Shown here piece after piece: positions 31,836 to 64,000 of a stretch of 64,000 bases of DNA; position 1 is the first letter of the stretch; each line of letters opens with the position of its first letter. Below the pieces are notes generated by a model, which was not told the origin of the DNA, searched no databases, and was given only the letters and a program-made list of their open reading frames with translations. This DNA is from Zea mays (Eukaryota > Streptophyta > Magnoliopsida > Poales > Poaceae): NCBI RefSeq assembly GCF_902167145.1, contig NC_050098.1, positions 16,016,501-16,080,500 of the forward strand, given 5' to 3'. The position numbers were made by a program, and so were the translations under genes.

Positions 31836-31840
31836 AAAAG

Positions 31841-42722: not shown

Positions 42723-42785
42723 CGCTCAGCACGCTCCAAATTGTGGGGCCCCGTACGTCATTTACTGTTGCTATTCTAGCAAAGG

Positions 42786-44411: not shown

Positions 44412-44430
44412 GTAGCCCCCGAGCCTCGAA
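44412..44430 (-). promoter_or_regulatory. polypurine tract of the Tat gypsy element
   Basis: On the minus strand CGAGGCTCGGGGGCTAC directly precedes the 3' LTR start, the expected place of the plus-strand primer. Confidence 0.7.
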
Positions 44431-45365: not shown

Positions 45366-46234
45366 TTCCTTCACAGGGAAGGATCCTTTTCGGGGTATCC
45401 CCCTTTCCCGGTCCCTGTTGCAAGAGATAGAGAAAGAGGAAAAAGGAAAAGGATACGAAATCGAATGACGTGGCATACCTTTTTTGGCGCGGTTATCACG
45501 GCGAAGGCGAAGCGTCGCCCGCTTCTCCTGCCAGAAACGCCGCCTTTCCTCCGCGGAGTTAATGCGACGGGGCGAGTGGTTGGCGGGGCGGCCGTTGCGC
45601 GTGCGCGAGCCGTTCGAGGGACGGATCACGGGTGCGCCGTCTTCGCGCCGTGAGAGGAGGCTCTCTTGCTACCCCTGGATGGGACGTGAGCCTGGCTGAC
45701 GACGCGACCGCTGCTCCCGCCCGCCTGCCACCGTCATTACTGCCGGCCCACTTTCGGCCGTATTGACCGTCGCGCCAGGCTGGCGCCGCTGGGTCGCCTC
45801 GAGTCGCGGCATCGGTTCCGCAACCGAAGAGGCGCGGCGGTGGCGCAAGTGGCGGTGCAGTTGCCTGCATGCAGCATCCGGCGCGCCGGTTGCGTGACGC
45901 GTGGGCCTGGGCCTCCAAGCTGGTGTGTCAGAAGTCGGAGAAGCGCGTCCACCTGGCGCGGTTGCATGCCGCCTGCATGGCTGCCCGCCCCTTCCGCCCG
46001 TTGGTCTGGGCAAAAGTGGGGGGTCGCTCGTAACCGCTGGGCGGTTGTGTGCACCACGCGCGGCGCTTTGGCTTCTTCTGCTCTGAGTCGGTTTGCATGA
46101 CATGCGGGACCTAGCCCCCGCGCCGCAGGGGAGGGCCTTGGAGTGTGTTCGAGAAGACTCAGCCTGTGGCGTTTGGGGGCGCACGTAGGGAGAGCTGCCT
46201 TTAAAAGGAGGGTGACCCCTTTTGGAAGGCAACC

Positions 46235-46585
46235 ATGTCTTCTTCCTCCCTCATGCGTCATGTCTTTCCATCTTCCAAGCCCCCAGATGGGGGGTACCCG
46301 CCGTCTTTCCGCCTCCTCATTGGAGGAACGCAACTCCGTGGGAGTTGGTACCTTTCAGCCATCGTTCGGCTTCAAGGATTTTCATCATGCAGCCCGGCCG
46401 TATCCCCCCGCCGGTGGTCACCCAAGATGGTGACCTCCAGCTTGATGGTGGGGAAAAGCGAGCCGGGCTGCGGCCTCTACCCCTCCCTCAGCCTCAAGGA
46501 TTTTCATCACCAGGGCTGGGGAGGGGAGTGTGCCGAGTTGAGGTCGGCCCCTGCGTGGGCGGCGGCCCGCTCCTTCACTCCGTGA
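46235..46585 (+). CDS. candidate antisense ORF in the Tat gypsy 3' region
   Basis: A 116-codon plus-strand frame (MSSSSLMRHVFPSSKPPDGG... ARSFTP), opposite to the element's genes. Its sequence type is familiar to me as a recurrent hypothetical protein of large grass genomes, but I cannot assign a domain. A TTTAAAA box at 46200..46206 lies only 29 bp upstream of the ATG, so the transcript start would be almost at the ATG or the start codon is further in. A GGATTTTCATCA motif occurs twice around it (46376 and 46498). It may be the counterpart of the antisense genes known in Grande/RIRE2-type elements, or chance. Confidence 0.3.
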   Translation: MSSSSLMRHVFPSSKPPDGGYPPSFRLLIGGTQLRGSWYLSAIVRLQGFSSCSPAVSPRRWSPKMVTSSLMVGKSEPGCGLYPSLSLKDFHHQGWGGECAELRSAPAWAAARSFTP

Positions 46586-47160
46586 TCTGAGGGAAGGGCG
46601 GTCGTCGTCCGTGGCGCTGGCAGCTGCACCGTGCCTGGCTCTCGGACGCGAGTGGCTTCGGAGCCGCTCGCGACGCCGGCGTCCGCCACGGCAGCTTGAA
46701 GAGGTTCTTCTGCCGGCGAGATGGCCAAGGCCGGCCACGGACCGACCTCCAACTCTACGGCCTTCTGCCCGTCCTTGCCTCACGAGTTTTGGCATGGGCG
46801 GGGGCCTCCTGGCAGCGGCATCCACCCTGAGGTCAGCGTTGCCGCTGTTCGGCCCCCGGAGCAGAAGTCGTCGTCGTCGCCGCTGCTGGAGCAGGTGATG
46901 GCGCGCCGTTCGTCGGCCTTCCGTCGCTCCGCAGGCCTTCCCCCTCGGAGTGGGGTTGTTCGTACCTGCGGAGGGGGAACCGGAGTTCCGTTTGCAATGG
47001 CACTTCGAATGCCAGTGTTTTTGTTCATTGTGGCTGTCGAGGCCTGAACATGTATGTAATTTCGGCACGGAGCCGTGTTTTTTCTTTATTTTCGAGCACT
47101 AAGTCTCGCCTGTCGATTATCTGAACCGCTTCACCAAGCATGAGTCGCCCCGTGTCAAGG

Positions 47161-48034
47161 TGACGAGTGAGGTATCCGTATCCCGGAGGCGTAGGAGTCC
47201 CTTGGCTCGATCGGCCTTGTTGTCTGAGGCTCCTCTAGCTTAGTTAAGGGGACCCCTTGGCCGCTCTTCGATGAGCCGAGACCAGGGGTAGCGATATCAG
47301 TACGAACAGAGGCGGAGTTGGCTCGAAAATGGGAACCTGGTTGGCCGGAGCCTAGCCGGGTTGTCTGTCAGCGGGGCCGACGCCGGAGTCGACCAGCCGA
47401 GGCCTCGGGTCGGGCTGGCGCCCTTGGAAGATGGTTGGCCGAGGCCCCAGGGGTAACCGGCCGAGCCGCCTGCTCGGGCCGGATTCCCGGAGAAGTCCCT
47501 GGACCGCGTCGCCATCCGAGGCCTGGTCGGATCTTCGCTGAAGGTGTCGTCGATGCCGAGGGTGCTAGCCCCCTTCCAGCGTGAAGACCCGAGCCTGCAG
47601 GATCAGATCGCCTTGTAGCGTGTGCCTTCTGCTGCCGCTGAGGCCAGAAAACACACCCTCGCTGCGCTGTAAAGCTGCGCCTTTTTTCCTCTTATTCCGA
47701 GCATCTGGACTTTTTCGTCGGTAACAGGGATGTTTGTGCGGGCGAGAGTTGCTTTTCGCGGAAGGTGATGAGTGAGGTATCCGTATCCCGGAGGCGTAGG
47801 AGTCCCTCGGCTCGGTCGGCCCTGCCGCTTACGCGTACTTTCACCCGTCCATGAGGCCCTGTCTCCGACTCAGTCGAGAAAGCTTGAAGGACCGCTTCGG
47901 CAGAAGAGCTTCCGAACGTAAAGACTTGTTCGGTCCACGGAGTCACTTTATCCGAACGCGAGTTACTTATCGCAGAAGGTGATGAGTGAGGTATCCGTAT
48001 CCCGGAGGCGTAGGAGTCCCTCGGCTCGGTCAGC
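47161..48034. repeat. dispersed 55-bp repeat, three copies
   Basis: A block with GAGTGAGGTATCCGTATCCC and GGAGGCGTAGGAGTCCC occurs at 47161..47217, 47765..47821 and 47978..48034, always in the same orientation, within the 3' region. Confidence 0.87.
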
Positions 48035-48271
48035 CTTGGCTGCTTACGTGTACTCCGTCGTTTCCAGGATCCGCTTTTCGAAGTAGTCAAAAAGCACGAA
48101 AGAAATTCTGCTAAAATGAGATCTTTTTTCGAGGAAAAAATTCGACGCAGAGGGGGTCTCCCCCCTTTTAGCCCCCGAGGGAGGGTCGGGCTTTGCCGAG
48201 GCGAGGCCGACCCTTCCTTGATGACTAAACTTTTGCGTGGGCGCGAGGTATATGAACAACTTGAAAACATC

Positions 48272-50215
48272 TTAAGGGTAGAAGCGACGTAGCTGTTTGA
48301 TGTTCCAAGCGTTGCCGTAGACCTCGCCTTGATTGTTGGCCAGCTTGTATGTTCCGGGCTTCAGAACTTTGGCAATGACGAATGGCCCCTCCCAGGGGGG
48401 CGTGAGCTTGTGCCTCCTCGGGCGTCTTGCCGCAGCCGAAGCACCAGGTCGCCCACCTGGAGGTCTCGGGACCGGACCCCTCGGGCGTGGTAGCGTCGCA
48501 GGGACTGCTGGTACCGCGCCGAGTGTAGTAAGGCCTTGTCCCGAGCCTCTCCCAGCTGGTCCAGTGAGTCTTCTCGGCTAGCTTGGTTGCTTTGATCGTT
48601 GTAGGCCCTCGTCCTCGGGGAGCCGTATTCCAGGTCAGTGGGCAAGATGGCCTCGGCCCCGTAGACCAGGAAGAACAGCGTGAAACCCGTGGCTCGGCTT
48701 GGCGTTGTCCTCAGGCTCTAGATCACCGAGGGGAGTTCCTTCATCCATCGCTTGCCGAACTTGTTGAGGCCGTTGTAGATCCGGGGCTTGAGCCCTTGCA
48801 GAATCATGCCGTTGGCACGCTCCACTTGCCCGTTCGACATGGGATGGGCCACAGCGGCCCAGTCCACCCGGACGTGGTGATCCTCGCAAAAATCCAAGAA
48901 TTTTTTGCCGGTGAACTGGGTACCGTTGTCGGTGATGATGGAGTTTGGGACCCCGAAGCGATGGATGATGTTGGTGAAGAACGCCACCGCCTGCTTGGAC
49001 CTGATGCTGTTCAGGGGTCGGACCTCGATCCACTTGGAGAATTTGTCGATGGCGACCAGCAGGTGCGTGTAGCCCCCGGGCGCCTTCTGCAAGGGACCGA
49101 CGAGGTCCAGACCCCATACAGCAAAGGGCCAGGTGATGGGTATCGTCTGCAGAGCCTGAGCGGGCAGGTGGGTCTGCTTCGCATAGAATTGGCACCCTTC
49201 GCAGGTGCGGACAATTCTAGTGGCGTCAGCCACCGCCGTTGGCCAGTAGAAGCCTTGCCGGAAAGCATTCCCGACAAGGGCTCGAGGCGCTGCATGATGA
49301 CCGCAAGCCCTCGAGTGTATTTCCTGCAGGAGTTCCTGACCTTCGGCGATGGAGATGCATCGCTGGAGGATGCCCGAGGGGCTCCGGTGGTAGAGCTCCT
49401 CCTCGTCGCCCAGCAAGACGAACGACTTGGCGCGTCGTGCTACCCGCCGAGCCTCGGCTTGGTCGAGGGGTAGCTCTCCCTGGCGGAGATATCGCAGGTA
49501 CGGGGCCTGCCAGTTTCGATCAGGCGTGGCCCCGCTCTGCTCCTCCTCGACGTCCAGTGCCTCGCCCTCGGGGGCCGAGGGTACCTCGGGCTGGACCGCG
49601 GACGCCTCGGGCTGATCCGAGGGCGCCTCGGGCTGTGCCGAGGGTGCCTCGGGCTCTGCCGAGGGTGCCTCGGGCTTGGGAGCGTCGTCGATCTTGACGG
49701 AGGGTTGATGCAGATCCCGGGAGAAGACGTCCGGGGGAACCGTTGTTCGCCCCGAGGCTATTTTAGCCAGCTCGTCTGCAGTCTCGTTGTAGCGCCGAGC
49801 GATGTGGTTGAGCTCGAGCCCGTAGAACTTGTCTTCCAGGCGTCGAACCTCATCGCAGTAGGCCTCCATCTTCGGGTCGCGGCAGTGGGAGTTCTTCATG
49901 ACTTGGTCGATGACGAGCTGCGAGTCACCGCGGGCGTCGAGGCGTCTGACCCCTAGCTCGATGGCGATCCGCAACCCGTTGACCAGAGCCTCGTACTCAG
50001 CCACATTGTTGGACGCCGGGAAATGGAGGCGTAGCACGTAGCGTAGGTGCTTCCCGAGGGGTGAGATGAAGAGCAGGCCCGCGCCGGCTCCCGTCTTCAT
50101 CAGCGACCCGTCAAAAAACATGGTCCAGAGCTCTGGTTGGATCGGAGCTGTCGGCAGCTGGGTGTCGACCCATTCGGCTACGAAGTCCGCCAACACCTGG
50201 GATTTGATGGCCTTC
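48272..50215 (-). pseudogene. Tat gypsy pol, RNase H and integrase part
   Basis: Minus-strand continuation of pol after copy 2. RNase H: MFFDGSLMKTGAGAG, EYEALVNGLRIA, DSQLVIDQV and the NETADELAKIAS tail. Integrase: an HHCC zinc finger (HSRACGHHAAP... CEGCQFY), the catalytic core with GLDLVGPLQKAPGG, ITDNGTQF and GQVERANG (D, D, E), then a C-terminal chromatin-binding-type part (GDLVLRLRQ, GPFVIAKVL). An Ala/Glu/Pro-rich repeat (about 49560..49680, PSAEPEAPSA-like) links RNase H and integrase. Breaks: TAG at 48718..48720 inside the integrase and a frameshift near 48430. The frame ends YP-stop at 48272..48274. Confidence 0.9.
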
Positions 50216-50913
50216 TGTTGGGGGCCTTCGTCCTCCGAAGGTCCTCAAAAACATGATTTAACAATGTTTTCCAAGTGGATTATGTGAACAGGTACCTTCG
50301 GACTCAGAATTACGAACATGAAGTGCGGTCAGGACGAAGCCTGAACCAGACGAAGGACGGGCTGATTACCAAGCTCCACGAAGGATGGTGCACAGCCGAA
50401 GCTGTGCGCAGGGAAGCTTCGTCGCGATAGCAGAGAGGGGAACCGACTTAAAGATGAAAAGACTACGTGGACCTTGTCAGGTTTCCATAAGTCATTGACA
50501 AATGTAATGGACATAAATGTAATTTTACGTGGGCTGCGTCCCGCGTCTATAAATAGATGAACAGTACTCCCGTACTGTTCAGGCTGACTTGGCATTTGCT
50601 TTTGCGTCACGCTTGTACTTTTTATCTTCTCTCAGGACCGAAGGTACATTTGTAATTTGAAATCATTTCTATTTTTCCATGTTAATAAAATAGAAATGAT
50701 TCTATGATGATGCTTATATTATATTTCATGCTTTATATGAATCCTTCGTCATTACTTGTTATGTTTACGAAGGTATGTCTCTTATGACCTTCGTCCGAAA
50801 CTCATTATTTCCCGAAGGGACATAATGCTTCGAAGGACGAAGGACTTTAACACTTAACACTTTTTATGTTGCCTTGTTCTTAATTCTTAGCATTTGAGAA
50901 CAAGTCATCAACA
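50216..50913 (+). repeat. 5' LTR of pol-less gypsy copy 2
   Basis: TGTTGGGGGCCTTCG...CATCAACA, followed by TTGGCGCCCACCTCCGG as presumed primer-binding site. TATA box TATAAATA at 50548..50555. Confidence 0.95.
50548..50555 (+). promoter_or_regulatory. LTR TATA box, copy 2
   Basis: TATAAATA followed by GATGAACAGTAC; the same context occurs at 36016 (copy 1) and 57362 (3' LTR). Confidence 0.7.
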
Positions 50914-50987
50914 TTGGCGCCCACCTCCGGTGAACTCACTTCCACTTCGAGTTTTTTGAACACCTTCGGAAGCTATAGACCCTCGCT

Positions 50988-52505
50988 ATGGCACCGAAGA
51001 AAGCTTCAGCGACTGGGGCTGCAGCACTGCAACCGCTGGACCCCAACCAGGAGACCGTCTCTCTCCGGGAGGCCCGAAACCAGAAGAGGAAGGCTGTCAG
51101 CCCGACGATTCAGGAGGATGAACTAGACCAAGAGATCAGGGACATGGAGATGCTACATCAACAGGTGCAGAGGAAGAAGGAGAAGATGGCCAGGCTAGCT
51201 GAGCTGCAGAGGCAGATAGACGAAGCTTCTGAAGAAGTCCGTCACCTTACCCACGATGAGCAGAACCGAAGGCCTCAACAAAAAGACCTTCATCAGGAGG
51301 GCTTCTTCAATGAAGATGACTGGTATGATAATTTTCATCATGGAAATTTTGTTTTCGACGATGCTTCTCCTCTGTCCGCTGAGCTGCAGGCTACACCTTG
51401 GCCTTCGTCCTATAAGCCACCCCAGCTTCCCATGTTCGATGGCCATTCGGACCCGAAGCAGTTCTTGATGAGTTACGAAGCAACAGTGTCTTCGTATGGT
51501 GGCAATGCTGCAGTAATGGCAAAGTCTTTCGTTATGGCCGTCAGGAGTGTTGCTCAGACCTGGTATTCCTCCCTTCGGCCAGGAACGATCACTTCATGGC
51601 AGAAGCTGAAGGATATGTTATTGACCAGCTTTCAAGGATTTCAGACGAAACCGGTCACTGCTCAAGCCTTGTTCCAGTGCACTCAGGATCATGAAGAATA
51701 CCTTCAGGCGTATGTCAGAAGGTTCTTGCGTTTGAGGGCGCAGGCACCAACGGTGCCCAATGAAATTGTCACCGAAGCCATGATCAAGGGGCTTCGTCCT
51801 GGACCTGCTGCTCAATACTTTGCTAGGAAGCCTCCTCAGACCCTGGAGAAGCTGCTCCAAAAGATGGACGAGTACATTCGTGCTGACAATGACTTTCGCC
51901 AAAGAAGGGAGGAGGCCTTCAGATTTTCCGAAATGACAAGGGGCTTCGGAGGAAGATCCTATCCGAGGCATGTCAGGTCCATCCACAACTCCACTCAGAA
52001 TGATGATAAGGGGAGTCAGCAGAACAGACCGCAGTGCTCTTCACAGGCTTCGGGGCAACAGCAAAGCTCCTTCCGACCACCAGCTCCAAGAGGCAGAGGC
52101 GCCAGGGGCTTCGGCGGAAGATTCGGGGATCAACCCAGAAGAATATTTTGCTTATTCTGTGGTGAAAACAAAGGTCATACTACCAGGATGTGTCATGTTA
52201 CCATTCAGAAGCAAAAAGAGATAGCCGAAGCTGCCGCGCAACAGGCTCAGCCGAAGCAGGTCATGCACACTGCTTCGTATCATTCGCCCTACATCCCAGA
52301 ATATGTGGGCAACCATCCTGCACTCTCTGCTGCTTCGGCAAGTCAGCCTTCAGCTTCCTGGCAACAGCCCCCGCCTCCACCTCCGTTGCAACAAGGCCAG
52401 CAGCTAGAAGGGAGCCAATATGCTCCACATCAAAGGGACTTCAGAGAACAGTCCGAAGCTCGCACGGTCAACAGCACCGTGCCAGAGTCAAAACACATCT
52501 ATTGA
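50988..52505 (+). CDS. Gag of pol-less gypsy copy 2
   Basis: An intact 505-residue frame from ATG 50988 to TGA. Residues about 20-95 are a charged, coiled-coil-like region (DELDQEIRDMEMLHQQVQRK). The retrotransposon gag core follows (QLPMFDGHSDPKQFLMSYEA, AQTWYSSLRPGTITSWQKLK, EEYLQAYVRRFLRLRAQAP). Near residue 390 is a zinc-knuckle-like CLFCGENKGHTTRMC with spacing CX2CX5HX4C rather than the usual CX2CX4HX4C. A Gln/Pro-rich tail ends the protein. Gag should assemble particles around the element RNA. The protein ends without a protease domain, and no pol frame follows. Copy 1 has a broken homologue. Confidence 0.92.
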   Translation: MAPKKASATGAAALQPLDPNQETVSLREARNQKRKAVSPTIQEDELDQEIRDMEMLHQQVQRKKEKMARLAELQRQIDEASEEVRHLTHDEQNRRPQQKDLHQEGFFNEDDWYDNFHHGNFVFDDASPLSAELQATPWPSSYKPPQLPMFDGHSDPKQFLMSYEATVSSYGGNAAVMAKSFVMAVRSVAQTWYSSLRPGTITSWQKLKDMLLTSFQGFQTKPVTAQALFQCTQDHEEYLQAYVRRFLRLRAQAPTVPNEIVTEAMIKGLRPGPAAQYFARKPPQTLEKLLQKMDEYIRADNDFRQRREEAFRFSEMTRGFGGRSYPRHVRSIHNSTQNDDKGSQQNRPQCSSQASGQQQSSFRPPAPRGRGARGFGGRFGDQPRRIFCLFCGENKGHTTRMCHVTIQKQKEIAEAAAQQAQPKQVMHTASYHSPYIPEYVGNHPALSAASASQPSASWQQPPPPPPLQQGQQLEGSQYAPHQRDFREQSEARTVNSTVPESKHIY

Positions 52506-52679
52506 CAAATATCCTACCTTAATAGCAATCTTTTTCATTCAGTTTTATTTTTTGTAATAAAGGACATTGTTTAGGTTTCATGTAATTAGTTTCGTTGATT
52601 CCTACAAGAAAAATATGTTTTCTTCACAGGTTTGTGATAATAAAAAGGACCTTCGGACTATCGAAAATTCTTCGAAGCA

Positions 52680-52995
52680 ACAAAAAGTCGTTCTAAGGAA
52701 CGCAGAGTAAGTCTGACGAAGTCACAAAAAGTTGTTCCGAAGGGAGCGCAGTGTAAGTTTTCTGCTCCAAAGTCGTTCCAAAAGGAATGCAGAGCATACA
52801 GCGAAAAGTCAACGCTGATACCGCCTAAGTAAAAGGCGAAGAAGCTCCAAAGACGTTCCTAAGGGAATGCAGAGCTTATACCGCCTAAGTAAAAGGCGAA
52901 GAAGTTCCAAAGACGTTCCTAAGGGGATGCAGAACTTACAGCGAAAAATAAACGCTGATTCCGCTGAAGTAAAAGGCGAAGAAGCTCCTAAGGGA
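52680..52995. repeat. CGTTCCTAAGGG repeats between the convergent genes (copy 2)
   Basis: Five or more copies of a GTCGTTCC(T/A)AAGGGAATGCAG-type module with GGCGAAGAAG spacers, between the end of gag and the antisense gene. A perfect-looking segment is duplicated around 52825..52895. Confidence 0.8.
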
Positions 52996-53496
52996 GGCTT
53001 ATAATGAAAAAGTCAGTATTGATACAAAAGATTGTGCCCCATTGCAGGAATGTGCGTATCTTCGGCACAAAATATCATTCTGCATAACATAACATCATGA
53101 CATCATTTTGCATAGCATAATCATCATACATCATGCTGCATGTGGCACAAGAAGGGGGCATGTTATCGATCTTCGGAAAATGCTTTGAAAAAGGGCAAAT
53201 CATGCCAAGTTACAGGGAGAAACAATATTGATTTTCGAGGTATAGCTTCGGAGATTATTTTTACGAAGCTTGGATATTTCTTATCAGAACACTATGGATA
53301 TTGTCGTGATAAATGATAAATTCTTCTTCACGAAGCATGAAAAGAAGGGAAGGTGTTTTTTTCGTCGAAGACTCAAAAATGGTACGTGTTTAAAGTTTCA
53401 TGCATCGTAAAGAATTGAATCATAAAACAAGTATATTACATACAGGATTACAGAATATTACACAAATCATATATCAAATGTTTTTTGCAATAGCAC

Positions 53497-56400
53497 TTAG
53501 TCTTCCCTAAGTACTATCTCTGCAGCTTCGTTCAGCAGTCGATCGACAACCTGATCCATGATAGCTTCGGCCATCTTTTTAATTTCGTCGTCATCTTTAG
53601 GCTGAGGGCCCGAAGATGCTTTAGTAGGATCTGAGTGAGGACGGGATACTATTACATCATTATTACAGATCGCGAACGAACTATAAAATTAAAAGTTATA
53701 ATGCAATGAAAACTATTCGCTAGTACCTATTTGCCCTTCGGGCTCTGCGTTTTTCTCAGCAGCTTCGGCTACTTTTCTAGCCTCATGAATCCCTTTCTCG
53801 CTTTTCTGAATGATTTCTTGGGCCATTTCTCTACCACCGTTGTCCCAGATGTCGGTGAAAAATTTTCCCCCAACCGCGCTAGCTTCGGCTGAAGGATCTT
53901 TTATATCTTCAGTGGACAAGGTGGCTTCGGACTGCGATAAAATCTTTACATGTTCACATCCTTTCCCCTCCAAAATAGTGGCAATCCCTCTGGCACCAGA
54001 AAAAGCGCAGATGTCACCGCGGCTACTCAGGATTTCCTCGAAGGCCTCCGCCTCATGATTGATCCATTCCAGGGGACCTTCGGGGTTACCTCTTATAAAG
54101 TTTTCTTCTTGCGAAAATGCGCCAATGCTGGCGAAGCTAGTTTTTATTTTCTTGACACACTCTATAGATTTGTCGAAGCATTTCTTCTTGGCTGACCGAA
54201 GCTCTTTAACAGTTTCTTCTAAATAATTTGCCCATTGGTCGCTGAGTTCTCGCCTTGTTTCTTCAAGTATGCATTCCTCTTTAGCTCTGGCTAATTGTTT
54301 ACGAAGGTTTTCAATTTCACACTTCTGAGCTTCGGCCTGACCTTTGAAAATAGCTTCGTCTTCTTTTATTTTATTTATTAAGGAATGCAATATTTTGTCT
54401 TTTTCGAGACCTTCGTTCCTCAGTTCAATTACTTCGGAACGAAGGTTGCTCAGGGCTATAGTACATCCTTCGTCCTCAGCATCTTTCTGTGCTCTGAGGG
54501 CATTGCTGAGTATCAGGCCCTGCAGACAGGAATATGTCTGTGTTAATAGTTTTAAACAAACGAAAAATTTTGAATTCAACAAAAATATAAGAATTCCATT
54601 TGTCGCACCTTTAAACTGTTGTAAGCTAGGCTGTCAGCCAGATCGTTCTTTGACAGCACCGAAAGTCCGTCTTCTAAAGTTGGAAATCCGAAGCTTCTGC
54701 TTATCTCCCGACAGACAGAAATTTCCTTGCTGTCGGGGAGGCAATACAAGAAATCTTCTTCTCCACTGCCATTAAATATCAACGCCCTCTTTGGATATTT
54801 CAACTTTTGGGCATAGTGTTGGGCCTCTTGTTCTTCTTTTTCTGTTAATTTTTTCCCCGAAGCATGACGAAAAATATAATCACGAATTTTGGATGCTTCG
54901 GGGGTAACAACACCAGTTCCTTCAGCAAAAGTTGGCTTTGTTATTTTTTCTGCCTCACTTTCCAAGGTCTTTGCCTTTGAGGGCTCTGAGGGCCCAGCTT
55001 CGGCTTCAGTATCTTGCTCTGGAGCTTTAGAACCCGAAGCTTCGACTGTTGTTTCAGGAGTGACGGCAGCCTTCTTCGGAGGGGTGCTTGAAGATTTGAT
55101 CGTTTCCAGCACATCTAGCACATTAGCCATTCTCCTTCTTTTCGGAGTCACTGCTGGCACTTTTTGATTACTTACTGTTTCAATGTTTGCCACAGGACTC
55201 AAAACTTCTGATGTTTTGGAGTCCTCGGTTGCTTCCTTTACCTCTTCCATTTTTTCTGTGAATGGCGCTTCGGCCTTCTCTTTCGTTTCTGATAACAAAA
55301 TTTTTGATTGCTCCAATTTTGTCTTCGTTGGTATTTCGGCTGTTTCTGTGGCTTCTGGCAGCAAAGTTGGCTCGGCTGGTTTTTCAGCTTCGGTGGCCGA
55401 AGAAGTCTCTCCGGTAAACTCAGGCACCGAAGCTGGTTCAATATAACGCGGTCGATAAGTAAGAACCTTTATCTTCTTCCTTTTCGGTTCTGGCTCGCTA
55501 GGAGCAGCTGTAGTTTCTTCTTTTGCAGAGGTTGTATTTTTTCTCTTCTGCCTTCGAATGGGGTAGCAATAGTCAGGGTAGACGAACCCGATGGCATCAA
55601 ATACCCGATTCAGCCTTTTCTTTTTTCGGCCTCTGAAGGCTGCTGACATTGCAGTATCTTCGGCCTTCGAGTATGTCCCAAGCAGCTCATCACTTAAATT
55701 GTCAATGCTTTTCAATCACTCATCGTCTGGCTCAATAAATTTATCTTCAAATTTAAAAGTGTACTTAAACCTGACGAGTCCACCTTCGTCGGCCTTTTTA
55801 ACGATTTCTTGTGGCATTTCCCATTTCTCCGCAAGCGGCCACACCCTGAAGGCAATATGCTCTTGTACTAAGTCCCTTGTTCCTATAAAAGAGCAGACAA
55901 CGCCGAAGGCTCTTTGGCACTCTTCGGCGGCTTCGTTCATTTCAACCTTCGGCCTCCGAAGGCCGAAGCTTTGCCAAATAGGACGCATAATTATACCTTT
56001 GATGTCTTCTCGTACTGATAAGTCATTCTTCACATAAAACCATTCTGTCATCCAATCCCCGGGCCATCTCTTCCGAAAAGTTGGTACGGGACAGCTTGCC
56101 CCGGACCGAGAGACGAAGCTGTAGCAGCCAAAGTTGTTATGGTACTGTTCTTTGCCCCAAGGTTTTGTTTCATATAATAATTCATGAACATTATAGAAGC
56201 TTCTTGCGTCAGGCTTCAGACCTTGGCTTCTCGTGGCCCACACGAAGATATTTAGCCTTATAATAGCCTCTGGAGTAAGTTGATGAAGATAGACTTCGAA
56301 GATTTTCAACACCTCCACGACGAAGCTGCTCAAGGGGAATCGCAATCCGGCTTTCAAAAAGCTTCGGTACACCACAACTTCATTTTCTTCAGGGTGTGGA

Positions 56401-56723
56401 CAAGTCTTTTCCCCTTCGTCCGCCCTCACAATGGACAGATCCCGGAAATACCTTCCTCTCATATTAACAAGATGATTCTCTTTGATAGTTGATTTACCAT
56501 AAACTGAATGGCTTGGTCGCCAGGGGCGATCTTCGGAGTCTTCGCCACCGCTGTCCACATCATAACTTTCACTGTCACCAGTATCTTCAGACAGCCCTTC
56601 CAGAATTTCCCTGGTGATCTTTTCTGTGTTGGTCTTCGACATTGCTATAAGAAACCCTAAGTTCTTCTCTTCATCAAGACTCAGCTTCATTTCAGCAGCA
56701 GCCTTCTTAGCAGCTTCAGACAT
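53497..56723 (-). CDS. antisense spliced gene of pol-less gypsy copy 2
   Basis: Three exons: complement(54609..56723), complement(53727..54519), complement(53497..53648), with GT...AG introns of 89 and 78 bp (phases 0 and 1). Coding length is 3060 bp (1019 aa) if one TGA at 55716..55718 (codon 336) is read through; copy 1 has Trp there. Start ATG is 56723 (MSEAAKKAAAEMKL). Residues about 100-250 (GLRFPLSSFVVEVLKIFEVYLHQ-like) match the plant PF04195 'putative gypsy type transposon' region; a KKRLNRVFDAIGFVYPDY block, a long Glu/Lys/Pro/Thr-rich linker, then exon 2 with predicted coiled coils (ALRAQKDAEDEG, KDKILHSLINKIKED) and FFTDIWDNGGREMAQEI. A TATA box is 143 bp upstream. Function unknown; related antisense ORFs occur in Grande/RIRE2-type elements. 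Confidence 0.85.
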
Positions 56724-56865
56724 CTTCGGAAACACTAAAAAATTGTTTTCAAAGCCGAAGCTTCAAAGCTAAAAGCTTAGCAGATCACAGTGCACAAGAG
56801 CTAAAAAATGAGTGAGCAAGAGTGGTTGGCCAGAAAGCGTGCAAAATAAGTTTGCGGTATGGCCG

Positions 56866-56873
56866 TATTTATA
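56866..56873 (-). promoter_or_regulatory. TATA box of the antisense gene, copy 2
   Basis: TATAAATA on the minus strand in the context CGTATAAATACGG, 143 bp upstream of the ATG at 56723, and matched by copy 1 at 42715..42722. Confidence 0.65.
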
Positions 56874-57010
56874 CGCTTGATGCGTTGAAAGTTGAAAGAC
56901 CCCACTTGTCATTGAATGTTGCTATTCTAGCAAAGGGAAGGTGTTTTTTCGGACCTTCGGCATAAAGCCTTCGTTCATATCGCAATCTGAATTTATTATT
57001 TCAAACAAAT

Positions 57011-57029
57011 TAATATTGCGAGGGGCTAC
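57011..57029 (+). promoter_or_regulatory. polypurine tract of copy 2
   Basis: TATTGCGAGGGGCTAC directly before the 3' LTR start TGTTGGGGG. Confidence 0.65.
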
Positions 57030-57727
57030 TGTTGGGGGCCTTCGTCCTCCGAAGGTCCTCAAAAACATGATTTAACAATGTTTTCCAAGTGGATTATGTG
57101 AACAGGTACCTTCGGACTCAGAATTACGAACATGAAGTGCGGTCAGGACGAAGCCTGAACCAGACGAAGGACGGGCTGATTACCAAGCTCCACGAAGGAT
57201 GGTGCACAGCCGAAGCTGTGCGCAGGGAAGCTTCGTCGCGATAGCAGAGAGGGGAACCGACTTAAAGATGAAAAGACTACGTGGACCTTGTCAGGTTTCC
57301 ATAAGTCATTGACAAATGTAATGGACATAAATGTAATTTTACGTGGGCTGCGTCCCGCGTCTATAAATAGATGAACAGTACTCCCGTACTGTTCAGGCTG
57401 ACTTGGCATTTGCTTTTGCGTCACGCTTGTACTTTTTATCTTCTCTCAGGACCGAAGGTACATTTGTAATTTGAAATCATTTCTATTTTTCCATGTTAAT
57501 AAAATAGAAATGATTCTATGATGATGCTTATATTATATTTCATGCTTTATATGAATCCTTCGTCATTACTTGTTATGTTTACGAAGGTATGTCTCTTATG
57601 ACCTTCGTCCGAAACTCATTATTTCCCGAAGGGACATAATGCTTCGAAGGACGAAGGACTTTAACACTTAACACTTTTTATGTTGCCTTGTTCTTAATTC
57701 TTAGCATTTGAGAACAAGTCATCAACA
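57030..57727 (+). repeat. 3' LTR of pol-less gypsy copy 2
   Basis: 698 bp, the same length as the 5' LTR and, on a line-by-line reading, without any difference from it. Followed by CCTTC target duplication. Confidence 0.95.
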
Positions 57728-58943
57728 CCTTCCGAGGGGCGAACGAGATTGTTTCGCCCATGATTTCCACCGCCCACTTTGCGATCCTGCCCGAGGCCTC
57801 TCGGCACTGGATGATCTCCCCCAGGGGGAAGGATGACACCACAGTTACCGGATGAGACTCGAAGTAGTGTCGTAACTTCCGCCTCGTCAGGATCACAGCA
57901 TACAGCAGCTTCTGAACTTGTGGGTAGCGGATCTTGGTCTCGGACAGTACCTCGCTGACGAAGTAGACTGGCCTCTGAACGGGCAATGCATGCCCTTCCT
58001 CTTGCCTCTCGACCACAATCGCGGCGCTAACCACCTGAGTGGTCGCGGCGACGTAGACCAAGAGGGCTTCTCCATCAGCTGGGGGCACCAAGATAGGCGC
58101 CTTTGTAAGGAGCGCCTTCAGGTTCCCAAGGGCTTCCTCGGCCTCAGGGGTCCAAGCGGAACACTCGGTCTTCCTTAAGAGGCGGTACAGAGGCAGACCT
58201 CTTTCGCCGAGGCGTGAGATGAAGCGGCTCAGGGCCGCGAGGCATCCCATGACCCTCTGTACGCCTTTTAAGTCCTTGATGGGTCCCATGCTGGTGATGG
58301 TTGCGATCTTCTCCGGGTTGGCTTCGATGCCTCGCTCGGAGACGATGAACCCCAGGAGCATGCCTCGGGGCACCCCGAAGACACACTTCTCGGGATTGAG
58401 CTTGACTCCTTTCACCTTGAGACATCGGAATGTCACTTCAAGGTCGGAGAGGAGGTCGGAAGCCTTCCTTGTCTTGACTACGATGTCATTGACGTAGGCC
58501 TCGACTGTGCGACCGATGTGTTCGCCGAACACATGGTTCATGCACCGCTGGTACGTCGCGCCCGCATTCCTCAAACCGAACGGCATGGTGACATAGCAGT
58601 ACATGTCGAAGGGCGTGATGAAAGAAGTCGCGAGCTGGTCGGACTCTTTCATCCGGATTTGGTGATCCCCTGAGTAGGCATCGAGGAAGGACAGGGTTTC
58701 GCACCCAGCAGTGGAATCCACGATTTGATCGATGCGAGGTAGAGGGTAGGGAACCTTCGGACATGCTTTGTTGAGACCAGTGTAGTCTACACACATCCGC
58801 CATTTCCCCCCTTTCTTCCTCACAAGCACAGGGTTGGCAAGCCATTCGGGATGGAATACCTCTTTGATGAACCCTGCTGCCATTAGCTTGTGGATCTCCT
58901 CGCCTATCGCTCTGCGCTTCTCCTCGTCGAATCGGCGCAGAGG
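57728..58943 (-). pseudogene. Tat gypsy pol, reverse transcriptase part
   Basis: Minus-strand [23 protein letters not shown], the [16 protein letters not shown] motif, [26 protein letters not shown], and the catalytic box reading [10 protein letters not shown] at 58479..58499. The normal second residue pair is DD; here an Asn codon (58488..58490) replaces the first Asp, which should abolish polymerisation. A nonsense TAG at 58944..58946 separates this from the upstream protease frame, in phase. The thumb/connection part ([33 protein letters not shown]) runs to the copy 2 insertion at 57732, within the RNase H-like domain boundary. Confidence 0.92.
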
Positions 58944-61307
58944 CTACCTGACGGGTCGGGCTCCGGCCCGAATATCCAGCGAGTGCTCGGCGACTTCCCT
59001 CGGTATGCCGGGCATGTCCGAGGGACTCCACGCAAAGACGTCGGCGTTTGCGCGGAGAAAGTCGACGAGCACTGCTTCCTGTTTGGGGTCGAGCCCGGAA
59101 CCGATCCGGATCTGCTTGGAGGTGTCGCCACTGGGGTCGAGAGGGACAACCTTAACCGTCTCCGCTGGCTCGAAGTTGCCGGCATGACGCTTCACATCTG
59201 GCACCTCCTTGGAGAGGTTCTCCAGGTCGGCGATGAGGGCCTCGGACTCGGCGAGGGCCTCGGCGTACTCCACGCACTCCACGTCGCATTCGAACGCGTG
59301 TTTGTACGTGGGGCCGACGGTGATGACCCCGTTGGGGCCCGGCATCTTGAGCTTCAGGTAGGTGTAGTTGGGGACGGCCATGAACTTCGCGTAGCATGGC
59401 CTCCCCAGTACCGCACGGTAGGTCCCTCGGAACCCGACCGCCTCGAATGTCAAGGTCTCCCTTCGGAAGTTGGAGGGCGTTCCGAAGCAGACGGGGAGGT
59501 CGAGTCGTCCGAGGGGCTGGACGCGCTTCCCAGGGATGATCCCGTGGAAGGGCGCAGCGCCTGCTCGGACGGAGGACAGATCGACGCGCAGGAGTCGGAG
59601 GGTCTCGGCGTAGATGATGTTGAGGCAGCTGCCCCCATCCATCAGGACCTTGGTGAGCCTGACGTCGCCGATGATGGGGTCGACGACGAGCGGGTATTTC
59701 CCCAGGCTCGGCACGTGGTCGGGGTGGTCAGCTTGGTCGAAGGTGATGGGCTTGTCGGACCAGTCTAGGTAGACTGGCGCCGCCACCTTCACCGAGCAGA
59801 CCTCCCGGCGCTCTTGCTTGCGATGCCGAGCCGAGGCATTCGCCGCATGCCCACCGTAGATCATGAAGCAGTCGCGGACCTCGGGGTACTCTCCTGCTCG
59901 GTGATCTTCCTTCTTGTCGTCGTCGTGGGCCCTGCCACCCTCCGCGGGTGGCCCGGCCCTGTGGAAATGGCGCCGAAGCATGACGCACTCCTCGAGGGTG
60001 TGCTTGACGGGCCCCTGATGATAGGGGCATGGCTCCTTGAGCATCTTGTCGAAGAGGTTAGCACCTCCGGGGGGCTTCCGAGGGTTCTTGTACTCGGCGG
60101 CGGCGACAAGGTCCGCGTCGGCGGCGTCGCGTTTCGATTGCGACTTCTTCTTGCCTTTCTTCTTGGCGTCGCGCGGAGTAGACGCCTCGGGAGCCTCTTC
60201 CGATGGGCGGCCCTGGGGCTGCTTGTCCTTTCGGAAGATAGCCTCGACCGCCTCCTGGCCAGAGGCGAACTTGGTGGCGATGTCCATCAGCTCGCTCGCC
60301 CTGGTGGGGGTCTTGCGACCCAACTTGCTCACCAGGTCGCGGCAGGTGGTGCCGGCAAGGAACGCGCCGATGACATCCGAGTCGGTGATGTTGGGCAGCT
60401 CGGTGCGCTGCTTCGAGAATCGTCGGATGTAGTCCCGGAGCGACTCTCCCGGCTGTTGCTGGCAGCTCCGAAGGTCCCAGGAATTCCCGGGGCGCACGTA
60501 CGTGCCCTGGAAATTGCCGGCGAAGGCTTGGACCAAGTCGTCCCAGTTGGAGGTCTGCCTCGGAGGCAGGTGCTCCAACCAGGCGCGAGCGGTGTCGGAG
60601 AGGAACAGGGGGAGGTTACGGATGATGAGGTTGTCGTCGTCCGTTCCACCCAGTTGGCAGGCCAGGCGGTAGTCCGCGAGCCACAGTTCCGGTCTCGTTT
60701 CCCCCGAGTACTTTGTGATAGTAGTCGAGGGTCGGAACCGGATCGGGAATGGCGCCCGTCGGATGGCCCGACTGAAGGCCTGCAGACCGGGTGGTTCGGG
60801 CGAGGGACTCCGATCCTCCCCGCTGTCGTAGCGCCCCCCCACGCCTGGGGTGGTAGCCTCGGCGCACCCTATCGTCGAGGTGGGCCCGACGGTCGCGACG
60901 ATGGTGCTCGTTGCCGAGGTGGCCCGGGGCCGCAGGCGCGGTGTTGCGCGTGTGCCCGGTGTAGACCGAGGCTTCCCGCATGAATCGGGAAGTCGCGGCA
61001 TGAGGTTCCGAGGGGTATCCCTGCCTTCAGGAGGCAGTGCTCTCGGCCCGTCGGGCCGCAGCGCCTTCCAGGAGATTCTTGAGCTCTCCCTGGATTCGCC
61101 GACCCTCGGTGGTTGATGGCTCCGGCATCGCACGGAGGAGCATCGCTGCGGCTGCCAGGTTCTGACCAACCCCGCTGGATGCGGGCGGCGGTCTGACCCT
61201 GACATCGTTGGCGACGCGGTGCTAGAGACCTTGGGGCAGGTGACGTATTTCTCCGGCCGGGGGTTGGCCCGCCCATACCTGCCCGACATCCCGACGGATC
61301 GGCTCAA
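58944..61307 (-). pseudogene. Tat gypsy gag core and protease
   Basis: Open minus-strand frame of 787 codons. From about 60770 down it carries the gag core (ITKYSGETRPELWLADY, ARAWLEHLPPRQTSNWDDLV, LRDYIRRFSKQRTELPNI, VIGAFLAGTTCRDLVS), a zinc-finger-like CPYHQGPVKHTLEEC, and an aspartic protease with VLMDGGSCLNIIYAETL (a DGG form, usual in this lineage) and AVLGRPCYAKFMAVPNY. The first roughly 150 codons are probably out of frame: another frame (LAAAAMLLRAMPEP, MREASVYTGHTRNTAP) looks more like gag, so a frameshift lies near 60800. It ends at TAG 58944..58946, which separates it from the RT in the same frame. Confidence 0.87.
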
Positions 61308-62328
61308 GCGCTCCTGCTCCCTCGTCGAGCCTGGCTTGCGCCCCGCGGACTTGCTCGAGCTGTGGGTCGTGACCCCCCGCCGGAACGGGGACCACAGCTA
61401 GCTCCCGCGGGATGTCGGCGCGAGGCACCGGCCTAGGAAGATCACCGTCCTCTGGCATGCCAAGATGGTTGCCTTCGGAGGGATCCCCTAGCTCGACATG
61501 GAAACATTCGCGGCTTGGGCCGCAGTCCTCGTCGTCAAGGCTGCGGCTACCGTCGGAACAGTCGGAGAGGCAGTAGTCACATGCGGTCATGAAGTCCCGC
61601 ATGGCACTGGGGTTGCCAAATCCGGAGAAATCCCAACAGATGCTGGGATCGTCATCTTCCTCGGACCCAGAGGGCCCGTAGGTCGAGACGTCCGTCAATC
61701 GGTCCCAAGGCGACCGCATACGAAACCCCAGTGGGGTTGCACTCGCCTCAATGAGAGCGCCCGCCAAAGCAAGGTTGCTAGGCGGGTTGAGGCCGAGTCG
61801 AAATGACGTAAGATGGGAGTTAGTCAGTACCTTTTGGTCGACGAGGAGCGACGTAGTCACATCGGGGACTGGCTGCACCGTCGTCTCAGGTACGAGGGCG
61901 ACGTCCTGCAAGCTTTCCGCGAGCGCGCTGGCGTCGTCTTCTTGCTCGGGATCAGCGTGTCGCGGGGGGGCAGCGCTTGCCTTCATCTCGAACGCGAGGT
62001 CGACGCCCGGCGTGCCTTCCGTCGGGGCGCTGGGGATGTCGATTCGCTCGACAGCCGACGAAGCGCGGCCTCCCGCTTGGCCTTGGTTGCCCCGCCTCCT
62101 CCTCCGTTGGCGGGGGAGAGGACGGGGCGAGCTCGAATGTTGTTCTTCCACCGTGCGGGGAAGATGTCGTCGGTTCCGCCGCCGGCGGGCGGGATGTCGG
62201 CCGCCATTGTCGTTGTCGCGCGGCGGTGGAAGGAGTATCATGTCGTAGCTGCCGTCGAAGGACATGAACTCAAGACTCCCGAAATGGAGCACCGTCCCGG
62301 GCCGGAGAGGTTGCTGGAGACTGCCCAT
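61222..62328 (-). pseudogene. Tat gypsy gag, N-terminal part
   Basis: 368-codon frame from MGSLQQPLRPG at 62328, 61 bp from the 5' LTR. It shows SSVERIDIPSAPTEG-like linker sequence, RMRSPWDRLTDVSTYGPSG, CWDFSGFGNPSAMRDFMTACDY and FHVELGDPSEGNHLGMP, which I recognise as the N-terminal Gag part of large grass gypsy elements. It ends at 61222, where the gag frame probably shifts into the frames described for 58944..61307. Confidence 0.72.
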
Positions 62329-62368
62329 CTGGAGCTTGACGGGAAGCTGTTCGTCAGCACGCAGCAGG

Positions 62369-62388
62369 CCCCTACCTGGCGCGCCAAC
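62369..62388 (-). promoter_or_regulatory. primer-binding site of the Tat gypsy element
   Basis: On the minus strand GTTGGCGCGCCAGGTAGGGG follows the 5' LTR end. It starts with the TGGCGC common to gypsy primer sites; the tRNA is not identified. Confidence 0.6.
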
Positions 62389-63957
62389 TGTCGGTGTTTC
62401 GAGACCGGGGGGTCCCTAAGCCGACGAGTGAGTGTGCCGCGTGCCCCAGCCCAGATGGGTCGAGCGCGTGGGCGAGCGCGAAGGGGGGAAAGGCGAGGTG
62501 GCCGGAGACGGACGTGAGAGAGCTGGAGATCCCGCGACCTTCGTGTTCGTCCCGCGCCCAGGTCGGGTGCGCTTGCAGTAGGGGGGTTACAAGCGTCCAC
62601 GCGGGTGAGGGAAGCGAGCGGCCCCAAGAGAGCGCCTGTCCCGTCCTCGGTCCCGCGCGGCCAACCTTCTCTAAGAAGGCCCTGGTCCTTCCTTTTATAG
62701 TCGTAAGGAGAGGATCCAGGTGTACAATGGAGGTGTAGCAGAGTGCTACGTGTCTAGCGGAGGGAGAGCTAGCGCCCTAAGTACATGCCAATGTGGCAGC
62801 CGGAGAGATCTTGGCACCCTGCTGGTGTGATGTCGTGGCTGTCGGAGGAGCAACGGAGCTTGGCGGAGGGACAGCTGTCGGAGCGATCGAGTCTTTGCTG
62901 ACGTCCCCCTGCTTCCGTAAGGGAGCTGAGAGCCGCCGTCGTCACAGGGCACGCGGGGCGCCATCATTGCCTATCTGGCGGAGCTGGCCAGATGGGACAC
63001 CGGTCTTGTTCTCTGCGGCCCGAGTCGGCTCGGGGTAGGGTGATGATGGCGCTCCCTGTTGACGTGGCGGGCCCGCGCCCGAGGCCGGGCGACGTGGGGG
63101 CTCCTCCGAAGCTGGGGTCGAATCTGTCTTCCGTTGCCGAGGCCGAGCCCGAGCCCCCGGGTCGGGCGAGGCGGAGGTCGTTCGGCAGAGGCCAGGGCGG
63201 AGCCCGAGCCCTGGGGTCGGGCGAAGCGGAGTTCGTTGTCTTACGGGTCTTAGCCCGAGTCCGAGCCCTGGGGTCGGGCGGAGCGGAGTTCGCCGTCTTC
63301 CGGGTCTTTGCCCGAGTCTGAGCCCTGGGGTCGGGCGGAGCGGAGTTCACCGTCTTCCGGGTCTTTGCCCGAGTCCGAGCCCTGGGGTCGGGCGGAGCGG
63401 AGTTCGCCGTCTTCCGGGTCTTTGCCCGAGTCCGAGCCCTGGGGTCGGGCGGAGCGGAGCTTCCTATGGCGCCTTTGGCAAGGCCTGACTGCCTGTCAGA
63501 CTCACTCTGTCGAGTGGCACTGCAGTCGGAGTGGCGCAGGCGGCGCTGTCCTTCTGTCAGACCGGTCAGTGGAGCGGCGGAGTGACGGCGGTCACTTCGG
63601 CTCTGCCGGGGGGCGCGCGTCAGGATAGAGGTGTCAGGCCACCTTTGCGTTAAATGCTCCTGCAACTCGGTCAGTCGGTGCGGCGATTTAGTCAGGGTTG
63701 CTTCTTAGCGAAGCCAAGGCCTCGGGCGAGCCGGAGATGTGTCCGCCGTTAAAAGGGGGGCCTCGGGCGAGACGGAAGTCCCTCGAGGTCGGCTGCCCTT
63801 GTCCGAGGCTAGGCTCGGGTGAAGCGTGATCGAGTCACTCGTATGGACTGATTCCTGACTTAATCGCACCCATCAGGCCTCTGCAGCTTTATGCTGATGG
63901 GGGTTACCAGCTGAGAATTAGGCGTCTTGAGGGTACCCCTAATTATGGTCCCCGACA
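62389..63957 (-). repeat. Tat gypsy 5' LTR (1569 bp)
   Basis: TGTCGGTGTTTCGAG...GGTCCCCGACA with few substitutions relative to the left LTR. Four 57-bp units (63234, 63291, 63348, 63405) against five in the left LTR. Minus-strand TATA (TATAAAA) at 62693..62699. As the gene strand is minus, this is the promoter LTR. Confidence 0.93.
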
Positions 63958-64000
63958 AAAGGGAAGGTGTTTTTTCGGACCTTCGGCTTAAGGCCTTCGT
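63958..64000 (+). mobile_element. continuation of pol-less gypsy copy 1
   Basis: After the AAAGG duplication the sequence GGAAGGTGTTTTTTCGGACC and CTTCGGCTTAAGGCCTTCGT matches copy 2 from 56936. The 3' LTR of copy 1 should follow outside the window. Confidence 0.88.

What the first reader, a model, noticed from the sequence alone, without database searches (positions are those of the whole stretch)
53497..56873. Pol-less gypsy family with an independent, spliced antisense gene conserved in two copies
Seen directly: copies at 35723 and 50216 both carry gag forward and a large gene in reverse. In both, the antisense gene has TATAAATA about 150 bp before the ATG and two short GT-AG introns at the same codon positions and phases (0 and 1). 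Introns in a retrotransposon antisense gene mean it is not removed by genomic-RNA splicing: the genomic RNA is its complement, so the introns survive every replication cycle. Known: Grande and RIRE2-type elements have antisense ORFs. Inferred: a pol-less element that keeps gag plus a spliced antisense gene suggests the protein has a role, such as a silencing suppressor, regulator of the sense RNA, or chromatin targeting, that selection maintains.
Basis: partly seen in the sequence, partly recalled or inferred. Interest (0 to 1): 0.86.

Follow-up and report, generated by a model that had tools for sequence, protein, structure and literature searches.

The report
Split jumping gene with DNA tag
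A very abundant jumping gene of what is most likely the maize genome lacks its own copying enzyme and carries, on its opposite strand, a predicted three-exon gene with the marks of protein-preserving selection, which likely makes a protein that recognises a short DNA word repeated along this element and along a relative that does carry the enzyme.

Summary
By LTR length it is most likely Zeon, the published gag-only partner of Cinful. Its antisense gene is the Transposase_28 (PF04195) gene known from the Retand lineage. So gene, orientation and missing pol are known kinds.

What I add: (1) the splice sites are conserved in the relatives examined (69 of 70, 60 of 62, 100 of 104) and in fetched copies; (2) the antisense frame shows purifying selection between the window copies (pN 0.21, pS 0.75); (3) the window copy has a private in-frame stop, while exon 1 is open in 18 of 20 sister copies; (4) unexpectedly, CTTCG/CGAAG saturates the whole element (105 sites in 6.8 kb) and a pol-bearing, gag-less relative, beyond synonymous-codon expectation, but not two loci of another TRP28 family nor the rest of the window.

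Best mechanism, inferred: the antisense protein is a nuclear factor that reads this tag, as VANC proteins do in VANDAL transposons. No binding or RNA evidence exists here, and some of my tests are neutral or against.

The parts
50216..50913 (+). 5' LTR (698 bp)
   Evidence: identical to 57030..57727; TSD CCTTC on both sides
50914..50951 (+). primer-binding site and leader
   Evidence: 38 bp, 95% identical to the pol-type relative L056; PBS role inferred from position
50988..52505 (+). gag, the only sense gene found
   Evidence: open frame, 505 aa; PF03732
52506..53496 (+). non-coding spacer with short tandem repeats
   Evidence: parts of it matched at 80-91% in pol-bearing relative L055
53497..53648 (-). 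antisense gene exon 3 with stop codon
53649..53726 (-). antisense gene intron 2 (78 nt, phase 1, GT-AG)
   Evidence: donor residue kept in 100 of 104 relatives that reach it
53727..54519 (-). antisense gene exon 2, coiled-coil-like
   Evidence: relatives; coiled coil judged by eye
54520..54608 (-). antisense gene intron 1 (89 nt, phase 0, GT-AG)
54609..56723 (-). antisense gene exon 1 with Transposase_28 domain; one in-frame stop in this copy at 55716..55718
   Evidence: PF04195 E 5.8e-11; no stop in exon 1 of 18 of 20 fetched sister copies
56866..56873 (-). TATA box of the antisense gene
   Evidence: TATAAATA 150 bp before the ATG, similar arrangement in copy 1
57030..57727 (+). 3' LTR
50216..57029 (.). 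105 CTTCG/CGAAG motifs over LTR, gag, spacer, antisense gene and its promoter; median spacing 42 bp
35723..42785 (+). copy 1: older, decayed relative with the same layout; resumes at 63958 beyond a nested element

Best explanation
The window holds a gag-only LTR retrotransposon, most likely Zeon, whose antisense strand carries a predicted three-exon Transposase_28 gene that shows purifying selection and likely encodes a nuclear DNA-binding factor that would act in trans on the CTTCG-tagged DNA of both the gag-only element and its pol-bearing, gag-less relative. Shown: the anatomy, conservation of splice sites and reading frame, the tag in both relatives, and no excess of it in two loci of another TRP28 family or in the rest of the window. 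Inferred: the gene is transcribed from its own TATA promoter and spliced; because the introns lie on the strand opposite the genomic RNA they are not removed during replication; Gag from Zeon and Pol from Cinful-type elements complement each other; the TRP28 protein enters the nucleus (basic clusters), binds the dispersed CTTCG sites and keeps the split family transcribable, much as VANC proteins bind motifs repeated in VANDAL transposons and remove silencing marks. A shared DNA tag would let one protein serve both halves while sparing the host genome.
For: PF04195 and gag. Of 120 listed exon-1 relatives 70 reach the exon end and 69 of these continue with Val (GTN donor); of 120 listed exon-2 relatives 62 show the start, 59 preceded by Gln (CAG acceptor), 1 by Lys, 2 by residues that do not fit AG; 104 show the end, 100 with Gly at the intron-2 donor. 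Copies: GT-AG for intron 1 in 20 of 20, intron 2 in 19 of 19 (20 of the 39 other hits fetched); copy-1 branch GT 8 of 8, AG 7 of 8, one of the eight being the window's own. pN 0.208, pS 0.753 over 913 codons; of the five other frames four give 1.08-1.76 and one, on the opposite strand, 0.25; all five hold 23-73 stops. Tag: per-segment z 4.6-15.6 in copy 2, four other stretches of the window -0.7 to 2.2; above synonymous-codon shuffles in four of four coding pieces (0, 0, 0 and 1 of 2000); kept between copies 42 of 94, against 21 of 100 for CpG-containing permuted words, P 0.0007. Pol-bearing relative L055/L056: RT, RNase H, integrase, no gag match in L056, LTR end 81-82% and leader 95% identical, tag z 11.7 and 11.9, tag excess over synonymous shuffles in its pol pieces. 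Genome: GCTTCGGC pairs 3604, reversed control 172. Other TRP28 loci L052/L053: 14 vs 10.4 and 18 vs 14.0 expected. Literature: Zeon LTR 698; Zeon GAG, Cinful POL; TRP28 predicted to bind DNA; 38/41 Cinful-zeon subfamilies down in mop1.
Against: No RNA, protein or binding data. The structure model was useless (pLDDT 31). The better keeping of the motif between the copies comes from coding DNA (26 of 66 vs 8 of 70, P 0.0003); in non-coding DNA it is not significant (16 of 28 vs 13 of 30, P 0.43), and in the spacer permuted words are kept as well as the motif. Motif letters in 20 young copies do not differ less overall (45 of 12,088 vs 417 of 139,327, P 0.17; CpG letters less, P 0.04; other C/G letters more, P 0.003). 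In the LTR and leader shared with the pol-type element the motif is kept no better than other words (3 of 7 vs 180 of 365). The antisense protein is strongly diverged between the relatives (exon 2 30%, a TRP28-side stretch 39% identical) while the tag stays the same. In the passages read, VANC motifs lie in non-coding tandem repeats; these lie in coding DNA too. Shared variants among young copies show little constraint in exon 1 (8 non-synonymous, 3 synonymous). In mop1, 9 of 10 Prem1 subfamilies go down as well, so that response is not unique. The excess in the L054 exon-2 piece is not significant (174 of 1000).
Confidence: 0.4

Rival explanations
1. The antisense gene is a real, spliced, selected TRP28 accessory gene with a nuclear role such as pre-integration-complex import or transcription control, but it does not read the CTTCG tag; the tag serves something else, for example recognition by Gag, integrase or a host factor.
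For: The anatomy and selection evidence stands without the tag. L052/L053 carry TRP28 frames without the tag. The tag is shared by relatives whose antisense proteins are strongly diverged. A review proposes retrovirus-like accessory roles (PMC7264820).
Against: It leaves unexplained why the tag covers both halves of the split family in both orientations, which suits a double-stranded DNA reader better than an RNA signal.
Confidence: 0.38
2. The antisense transcript, not the protein, matters: it pairs with the sense RNA and tunes silencing through double-stranded RNA.
For: The transcript would overlap the 3' half of the genomic RNA; this role is proposed in PMC7264820.
Against: Changes between the copies fall mostly on third codon positions of the antisense frame (493 against 238 and 169), and splice sites are kept, none of which an RNA-only role needs.
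Confidence: 0.08
3. The motif excess is a by-product of mutation or base-composition bias in this lineage, not a binding site.
For: Short word; family-wide; no significant extra keeping in non-coding DNA.
Against: In coding DNA permuted words with CpG are kept less well (26 of 66 vs 8 of 70); excess over synonymous shuffles in gag, the antisense exons and three of four pol pieces at 0-1 per 1000-2000; absent from three fetched stretches without gag (L039, L042, L046 z -1.0, 2.5, 0.1).
Confidence: 0.09
4. The antisense frame is a relic maintained only by hitch-hiking and amplification of recent master copies.
For: Both window copies are broken; shared variants in exon 1 among young copies are mostly amino-acid changing (8 against 3).
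Against: Strong constraint on that frame between diverged copies; no stop in exon 1 of 18 of 20 fetched sister copies.
Confidence: 0.05

Closest known systems
Zeon / Cinful (Cinful-zeon, RLG00001) of maize
   Same: gag-only element and pol-only partner with related LTRs; LTR 698 bp and about 7.5 kb match the published Zeon sizes (PMC3091746 Table 1; PMC8547701)
   Different: the sections and passages read do not describe the spliced antisense gene or the CTTCG tag; identity rests on sizes and layout, no published sequence was compared
Retand lineage with antisense TRP28 ORFs (PMC11963269)
   Same: antisense PF04195 gene before the 3' LTR, non-autonomous members, two maize clusters without GAG
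   Different: that survey picked elements by their RT, so it leaves out gag-only ones, and counted ORFs of 600 bp or more (plus shorter TRP28 ORFs) rather than exons of one gene
Grande gene23 (as described in PMC7264820)
   Same: antisense gene in a maize gypsy element with its own promoter; nuclear protein
   Different: lies between pol and the 3' LTR of an element with pol; no sequence of gene23 was compared here; intron content not seen
VANC anti-silencing proteins of VANDAL DNA transposons (PMC5735166)
   Same: element-encoded protein plus a short word repeated along the element, differing between families
   Different: DNA transposons, motifs in non-coding tandem repeats, binding proven; here retrotransposon, motif also in coding DNA, binding untested

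Membership tests
Retand-lineage antisense TRP28 gene | PF04195 domain above cut-off in an antisense frame before the 3' LTR | tested here: met
   42.9 bits against cut-off 26.2
Retand-lineage antisense TRP28 gene | RT phylogeny within Retand | not tested
   the window element has no RT; the pol-type relative has RT and two RNase H-type domains but no tree was made
Zeon (gag-only half of Cinful-zeon) | LTR and element size | tested here: met
   698 bp LTR and 7512 bp here; 698 and 7.459 kb published
Zeon (gag-only half of Cinful-zeon) | GAG present, POL absent | tested here: met
   for the window copy; gag also matched in 11 of 14 stretches fetched beside relatives, not in the other 3 (pol was not searched there)
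Zeon (gag-only half of Cinful-zeon) | sequence identity of 80% to the published element | not tested
   no published Zeon sequence was at hand
Split gag/pol pair | pol-bearing partner with related LTR and PBS and no gag | tested here: met
   L056/L055, one locus: LTR end 81-82%, leader 95%, no gag match in L056, RT-RNase H-integrase
Split gag/pol pair | each half moves with the other's protein | not testable with these tools
   needs experiments
VANC-like anti-silencing system | short motif over-represented across the element and family-specific | tested here: met
   only one other TRP28 family (two loci) compared
VANC-like anti-silencing system | protein binds the motif | not testable with these tools
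   needs DAP-seq or gel shift
VANC-like anti-silencing system | loss of DNA methylation on target elements | tested here: inconclusive
   proxy only: CpG letters in motifs differ less (P 0.04), other C/G letters more (P 0.003)

The most novel reading that the evidence does not exclude
Maize's gag-only and pol-only retrotransposon halves share an element-wide DNA tag, CTTCG, written across coding and non-coding DNA alike, and a spliced antisense TRP28 protein reads it: a VANC-type sequence-specific counter-silencing system in LTR retrotransposons, with each TRP28 family having its own tag.
Probability: 0.24. Interest if true: 0.88.

Novelty: new variant of a known kind. Interest (0 to 1): 0.64.

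Why it matters
Antisense TRP28 genes were found in 97% of the recently active Retand clusters surveyed across flowering plants, yet their function is unknown (PMC11963269). If the protein reads a dispersed tag, its role becomes directly testable with one binding assay, and it would help explain how a split family came to fill several percent of the maize genome (Zeon 8%, Cinful 5% in PMC3091746). If the introns are real, earlier ORF counts have probably split one gene into several.

Tried and rejected
Structure of the TRP28 protein: AlphaFold2 on 43 relatives gave mean pLDDT 31.4, so no fold search was made; a sequence search of the PDB was not tried. Scans of the viral and prokaryotic collections returned no relative. 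UUCG RNA tetraloop as the reason for CTTCGG: judged unlikely because both orientations are similarly common; no hairpin test was run. Methylation-protection signal from differing letters: inconclusive. dN/dS with Jukes-Cantor correction saturates at synonymous sites (lower bootstrap bounds of 0 come from that), so pN and pS are given. Motif co-evolution with the protein: only two other TRP28 loci, of one related family, could be fetched, so inconclusive. In L052/L053 a second, coiled-coil-like frame follows the TRP28 frame, suggesting introns there too; by eye only.
Full report
What is there. Window copy 2 (50216..57727, 7512 bp) has identical 698-bp LTRs and a CCTTC target duplication, gag forward, a spacer with short tandem repeats and a large antisense gene. 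Copy 1 (35723..42785) has the same layout but is old: after a nested element it resumes at 63958, and its LTRs differ at 40 of 664 sites, K2P 0.063. The nested element (42786..63957, TSD AAAGG) carries gag, RT, RNase H-type domains and integrase on the minus strand; its size without copy 2, about 13.7 kb, is near the published mean of Huck (13,407), a label given by size only. Copy 2 sits inside it.

The host. The genome has 2.18 Gb and ten large contigs of 152-308 Mb; I recall these as maize chromosome sizes. The first look found 6236 candidate places for a piece of copy 2's antisense gene, the 40 scored being 99-100% identical, and 10,123 for a piece of copy 1's, the 40 scored being 89-100% identical. 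For PF04195 it found 39,000 candidates, 150 scored.

The antisense gene. Exon 1 holds a Transposase_28 domain (42.9 bits, cut-off 26.2). 1895 relatives were found among the 7993 candidates scored; 120 were listed. In 70 of these 120 the frame reaches the exon-1 end; 69 of the 70 continue with Val, as a GT donor in phase 0 demands, and in most the frame stops within a few residues. For exon 2, 3469 relatives were found and 120 listed: 62 show the start, 59 of them preceded by Gln (CAG), 1 by Lys and 2 by residues that do not fit AG; 104 show the end, 100 of them with Gly (phase-1 donor). Five of the twelve relatives printed read through an open intron 1, and by eye that part is the variable one. 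Of the 39 other hits, 20 were fetched: GT-AG holds for intron 1 in 20 of 20 and for intron 2 in 19 of 19 (one copy is cut off); exon 1 is without a stop in 18 of 20. In 8 loci of the copy-1 branch (one of them the window's own) GT holds in 8 and AG in 7. L054, tied to the pol side, has AAG|GT...CAG|AG at the same phase-0 place (read by eye). On the strand of the genomic RNA these introns are not GT-AG, so replication would not remove them: an inference, but a sound one.

Selection. Between copies 1 and 2 the antisense exons give pN 0.208 and pS 0.753 (913 codons; one stop in copy 2 and two in copy 1 left out); exon 1 dN/dS 0.09 (bootstrap 0-0.16), gag 0.085 (0.06-0.12). The other five frames give 1.08, 1.72, 1.10, 0.25 and 1.76 with 23-73 stops; the 0.25 is a frame of the opposite strand. 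Synonymous sites are saturated and the alignment was built from protein-level matches, so the value is approximate. In the window copy plus the fetched copies that fit (20 sequences for the exons, 19 for gag), singletons give pN/pS 0.37 (exon 1), 0.60 (exon 2) and 0.21 (gag); variants shared by two or more copies give 8 non-synonymous to 3 synonymous in exon 1, 0 to 4 in exon 2 and 1 to 6 in gag: few numbers, and exon 1 shows no clear constraint there.

The state of the window copies. Copy 2 has one in-frame stop in exon 1; it is private, since none of the 20 fetched sister copies has it. Copy 1 is broken in several places. Both would depend on protein from other copies.

The partner. Of 14 stretches fetched beside relatives of copy 1 (14 of 40 hits), 11 showed gag and 3 did not (L039, L042, L046); pol was not searched for there. 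Chasing the motif led to L055/L056 (one locus): LTR end 81-82% and leader 95% identical to the window element, no gag match in L056, then a protease-like frame (by eye) about 230 bp after the LTR, RT, RNase H domains and integrase, then the same spacer. L054, a second locus whose spacer is 89% identical to that of L055 over 402 bp, has a diverged antisense gene (exon 2 30% identical). So pol and antisense gene were seen on two loci of the same type, not on one. The pol query has 7542 candidate places; the 40 scored are 94-100% identical. [quoted passage not shown] Table 1 of PMC3091746 (section read) gives Zeon 7.459 kb, LTR 698 and 1930 ESTs, and Cinful 9.568 kb, LTR 653. The LTR length equals the window's. 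In PMC11963269 (parts 1-3 of 5 read) the two maize Retand clusters lack GAG and carry TRP28.

The tag. CTTCG/CGAAG occurs 105 times in 50216..57029, median spacing 42 bp, largest gap 226 bp, both orientations similarly common, extended form GCTTCGGC. Against first-order simulations: LTR 16 vs 1.3, gag 18 vs 3.0, spacer 14 vs 1.6, antisense gene 51 vs 7.8, promoter 4 vs 0.6; four other stretches of the window z -0.7 to 2.2. With a second-order expectation it is 105 vs 29.6 in copy 2 and 81 vs 25.6 in copy 1, and it is the top 5-mer only in these two of nine blocks. It exceeds synonymous-codon shuffles in gag (18 vs 6.0), both exon-1 pieces (17 vs 7.6; 15 vs 4.8) and exon 2 (16 vs 7.6). Of 94 aligned sites in copy 2, 42 are kept in copy 1, against 21 of 100 permuted words containing CG (P 0.0007) and 111 of 425 permuted words in all (P 0.0007); in coding DNA 26 of 66 vs 8 of 70 (P 0.0003), in non-coding DNA 16 of 28 vs 13 of 30 (P 0.43). 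Of 22 loci of the copy-1 branch (L030 being the window's own), 19 have z 4.8-17.8; the three stretches without gag give -1.0, 2.5 and 0.1. In the pol-type relative: L054 33 vs 8.4, L055 29 vs 4.1, L056 20 vs 2.1; with the second-order expectation 33 vs 10.5, 29 vs 9.0 and 20 vs 4.9. Over synonymous shuffles three of four pol pieces reach 0 of 1000 and one 22 of 1000, the L054 exon-1 piece 5 of 1000, its exon-2 piece not (174 of 1000). Two loci of another TRP28 family (L052, L053: 838- and 848-aa frames; in L052 a frame read by eye as integrase lies on the opposite strand) lack it (z 1.0 both; shuffles 81 and 326 of 1000) and instead share an 89-bp tandem array with GACTTAAG words in both orientations. 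Genome-wide, pairs of GCTTCGGC within 12 bases number 3604 against 172 for the reversed control.

Mechanism. A word placed on both strands of coding and non-coding DNA, in two complementary relatives, suits a double-strand DNA reader made by the element. The antisense gene is the candidate seen on both sides. Its relatives keep basic clusters (RKKKR-like in 34 of 43 rows, KRKRM-like in 39 of 43), which suggests nuclear entry; the Grande counterpart is reported as nuclear (PMC7264820, parts 1-2 of 3 read) and TRP28 is predicted to bind DNA. VANC21 binds YAGTATTAY repeated in VANDAL21, with loss of methylation (PMC5735166, passages). In mop1 plants 38 of 41 Cinful-zeon and 9 of 10 Prem1 subfamilies go down while 19 of 20 Huck subfamilies go up (PMC2774947, passages), so the family does not follow Huck; this is compatible with the model, not proof. 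Against it: the LTR comparison between the relatives shows no extra keeping of the motif (3 of 7 vs 180 of 365), non-coding DNA shows none between copies 1 and 2, differing letters in young copies are mixed, and the TRP28 side of the protein is only 39% identical over 49 residues (the fragment lies just beside the L056 LTR and may belong to a neighbouring copy).

Novelty. Antisense TRP28, non-autonomy and the gag/pol split are in print. That proteins from additional ORFs of LTR elements might shape their own methylation as VANC does is raised as an open question in PMC12844716 (passages). I found no report of the conserved introns of this gene (searches; PMC6317226 passages; the one paper listed was not opened) or of the CTTCG tag (searches, listings only); most subscription papers are not in that library, and I did not see the original Grande, Cinful or Zeon papers.

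Noticed in passing
42786..63957: A Huck-like LTR element (minus strand gag-pol, TSD AAAGG) is nested in copy 1 and itself holds copy 2.
   Followed up: partly
63958..64000 and L029: Copy 1 resumes here and ends in its 3' LTR just beyond the window; its two LTRs differ at 40 of 664 sites.
   Followed up: yes
28001..35000; L046; L054: The word CCGGAC is strongly over-represented (17 vs 2.2, 23 vs 2.9, 19 vs 2.2), with CACCGG and ACCGGA: a second repeated word in other elements.
   Followed up: no
L052 4295..4897, L053 1..230: 89-bp tandem array with GACTTAAG words in both orientations beside the antisense TRP28 frames of another family.
   Followed up: partly
56919..56933 and 42768..42782: The interrupted palindrome TTGCTAGAATAGCAA lies upstream of the antisense TATA box in both copies (sequence).
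   Followed up: no
43540..43970: 57-bp tandem repeats in the nested element.
   Followed up: no
18288..29772: Copia-type gag and RVT_2 polyprotein frames.
   Followed up: no
50988..52505 vs 53497..56723: Synonymous divergence between the copies is lower in gag (pS 0.58) than in the antisense gene (pS 0.75), hinting at mixed ancestry or extra constraint in gag.
   Followed up: no
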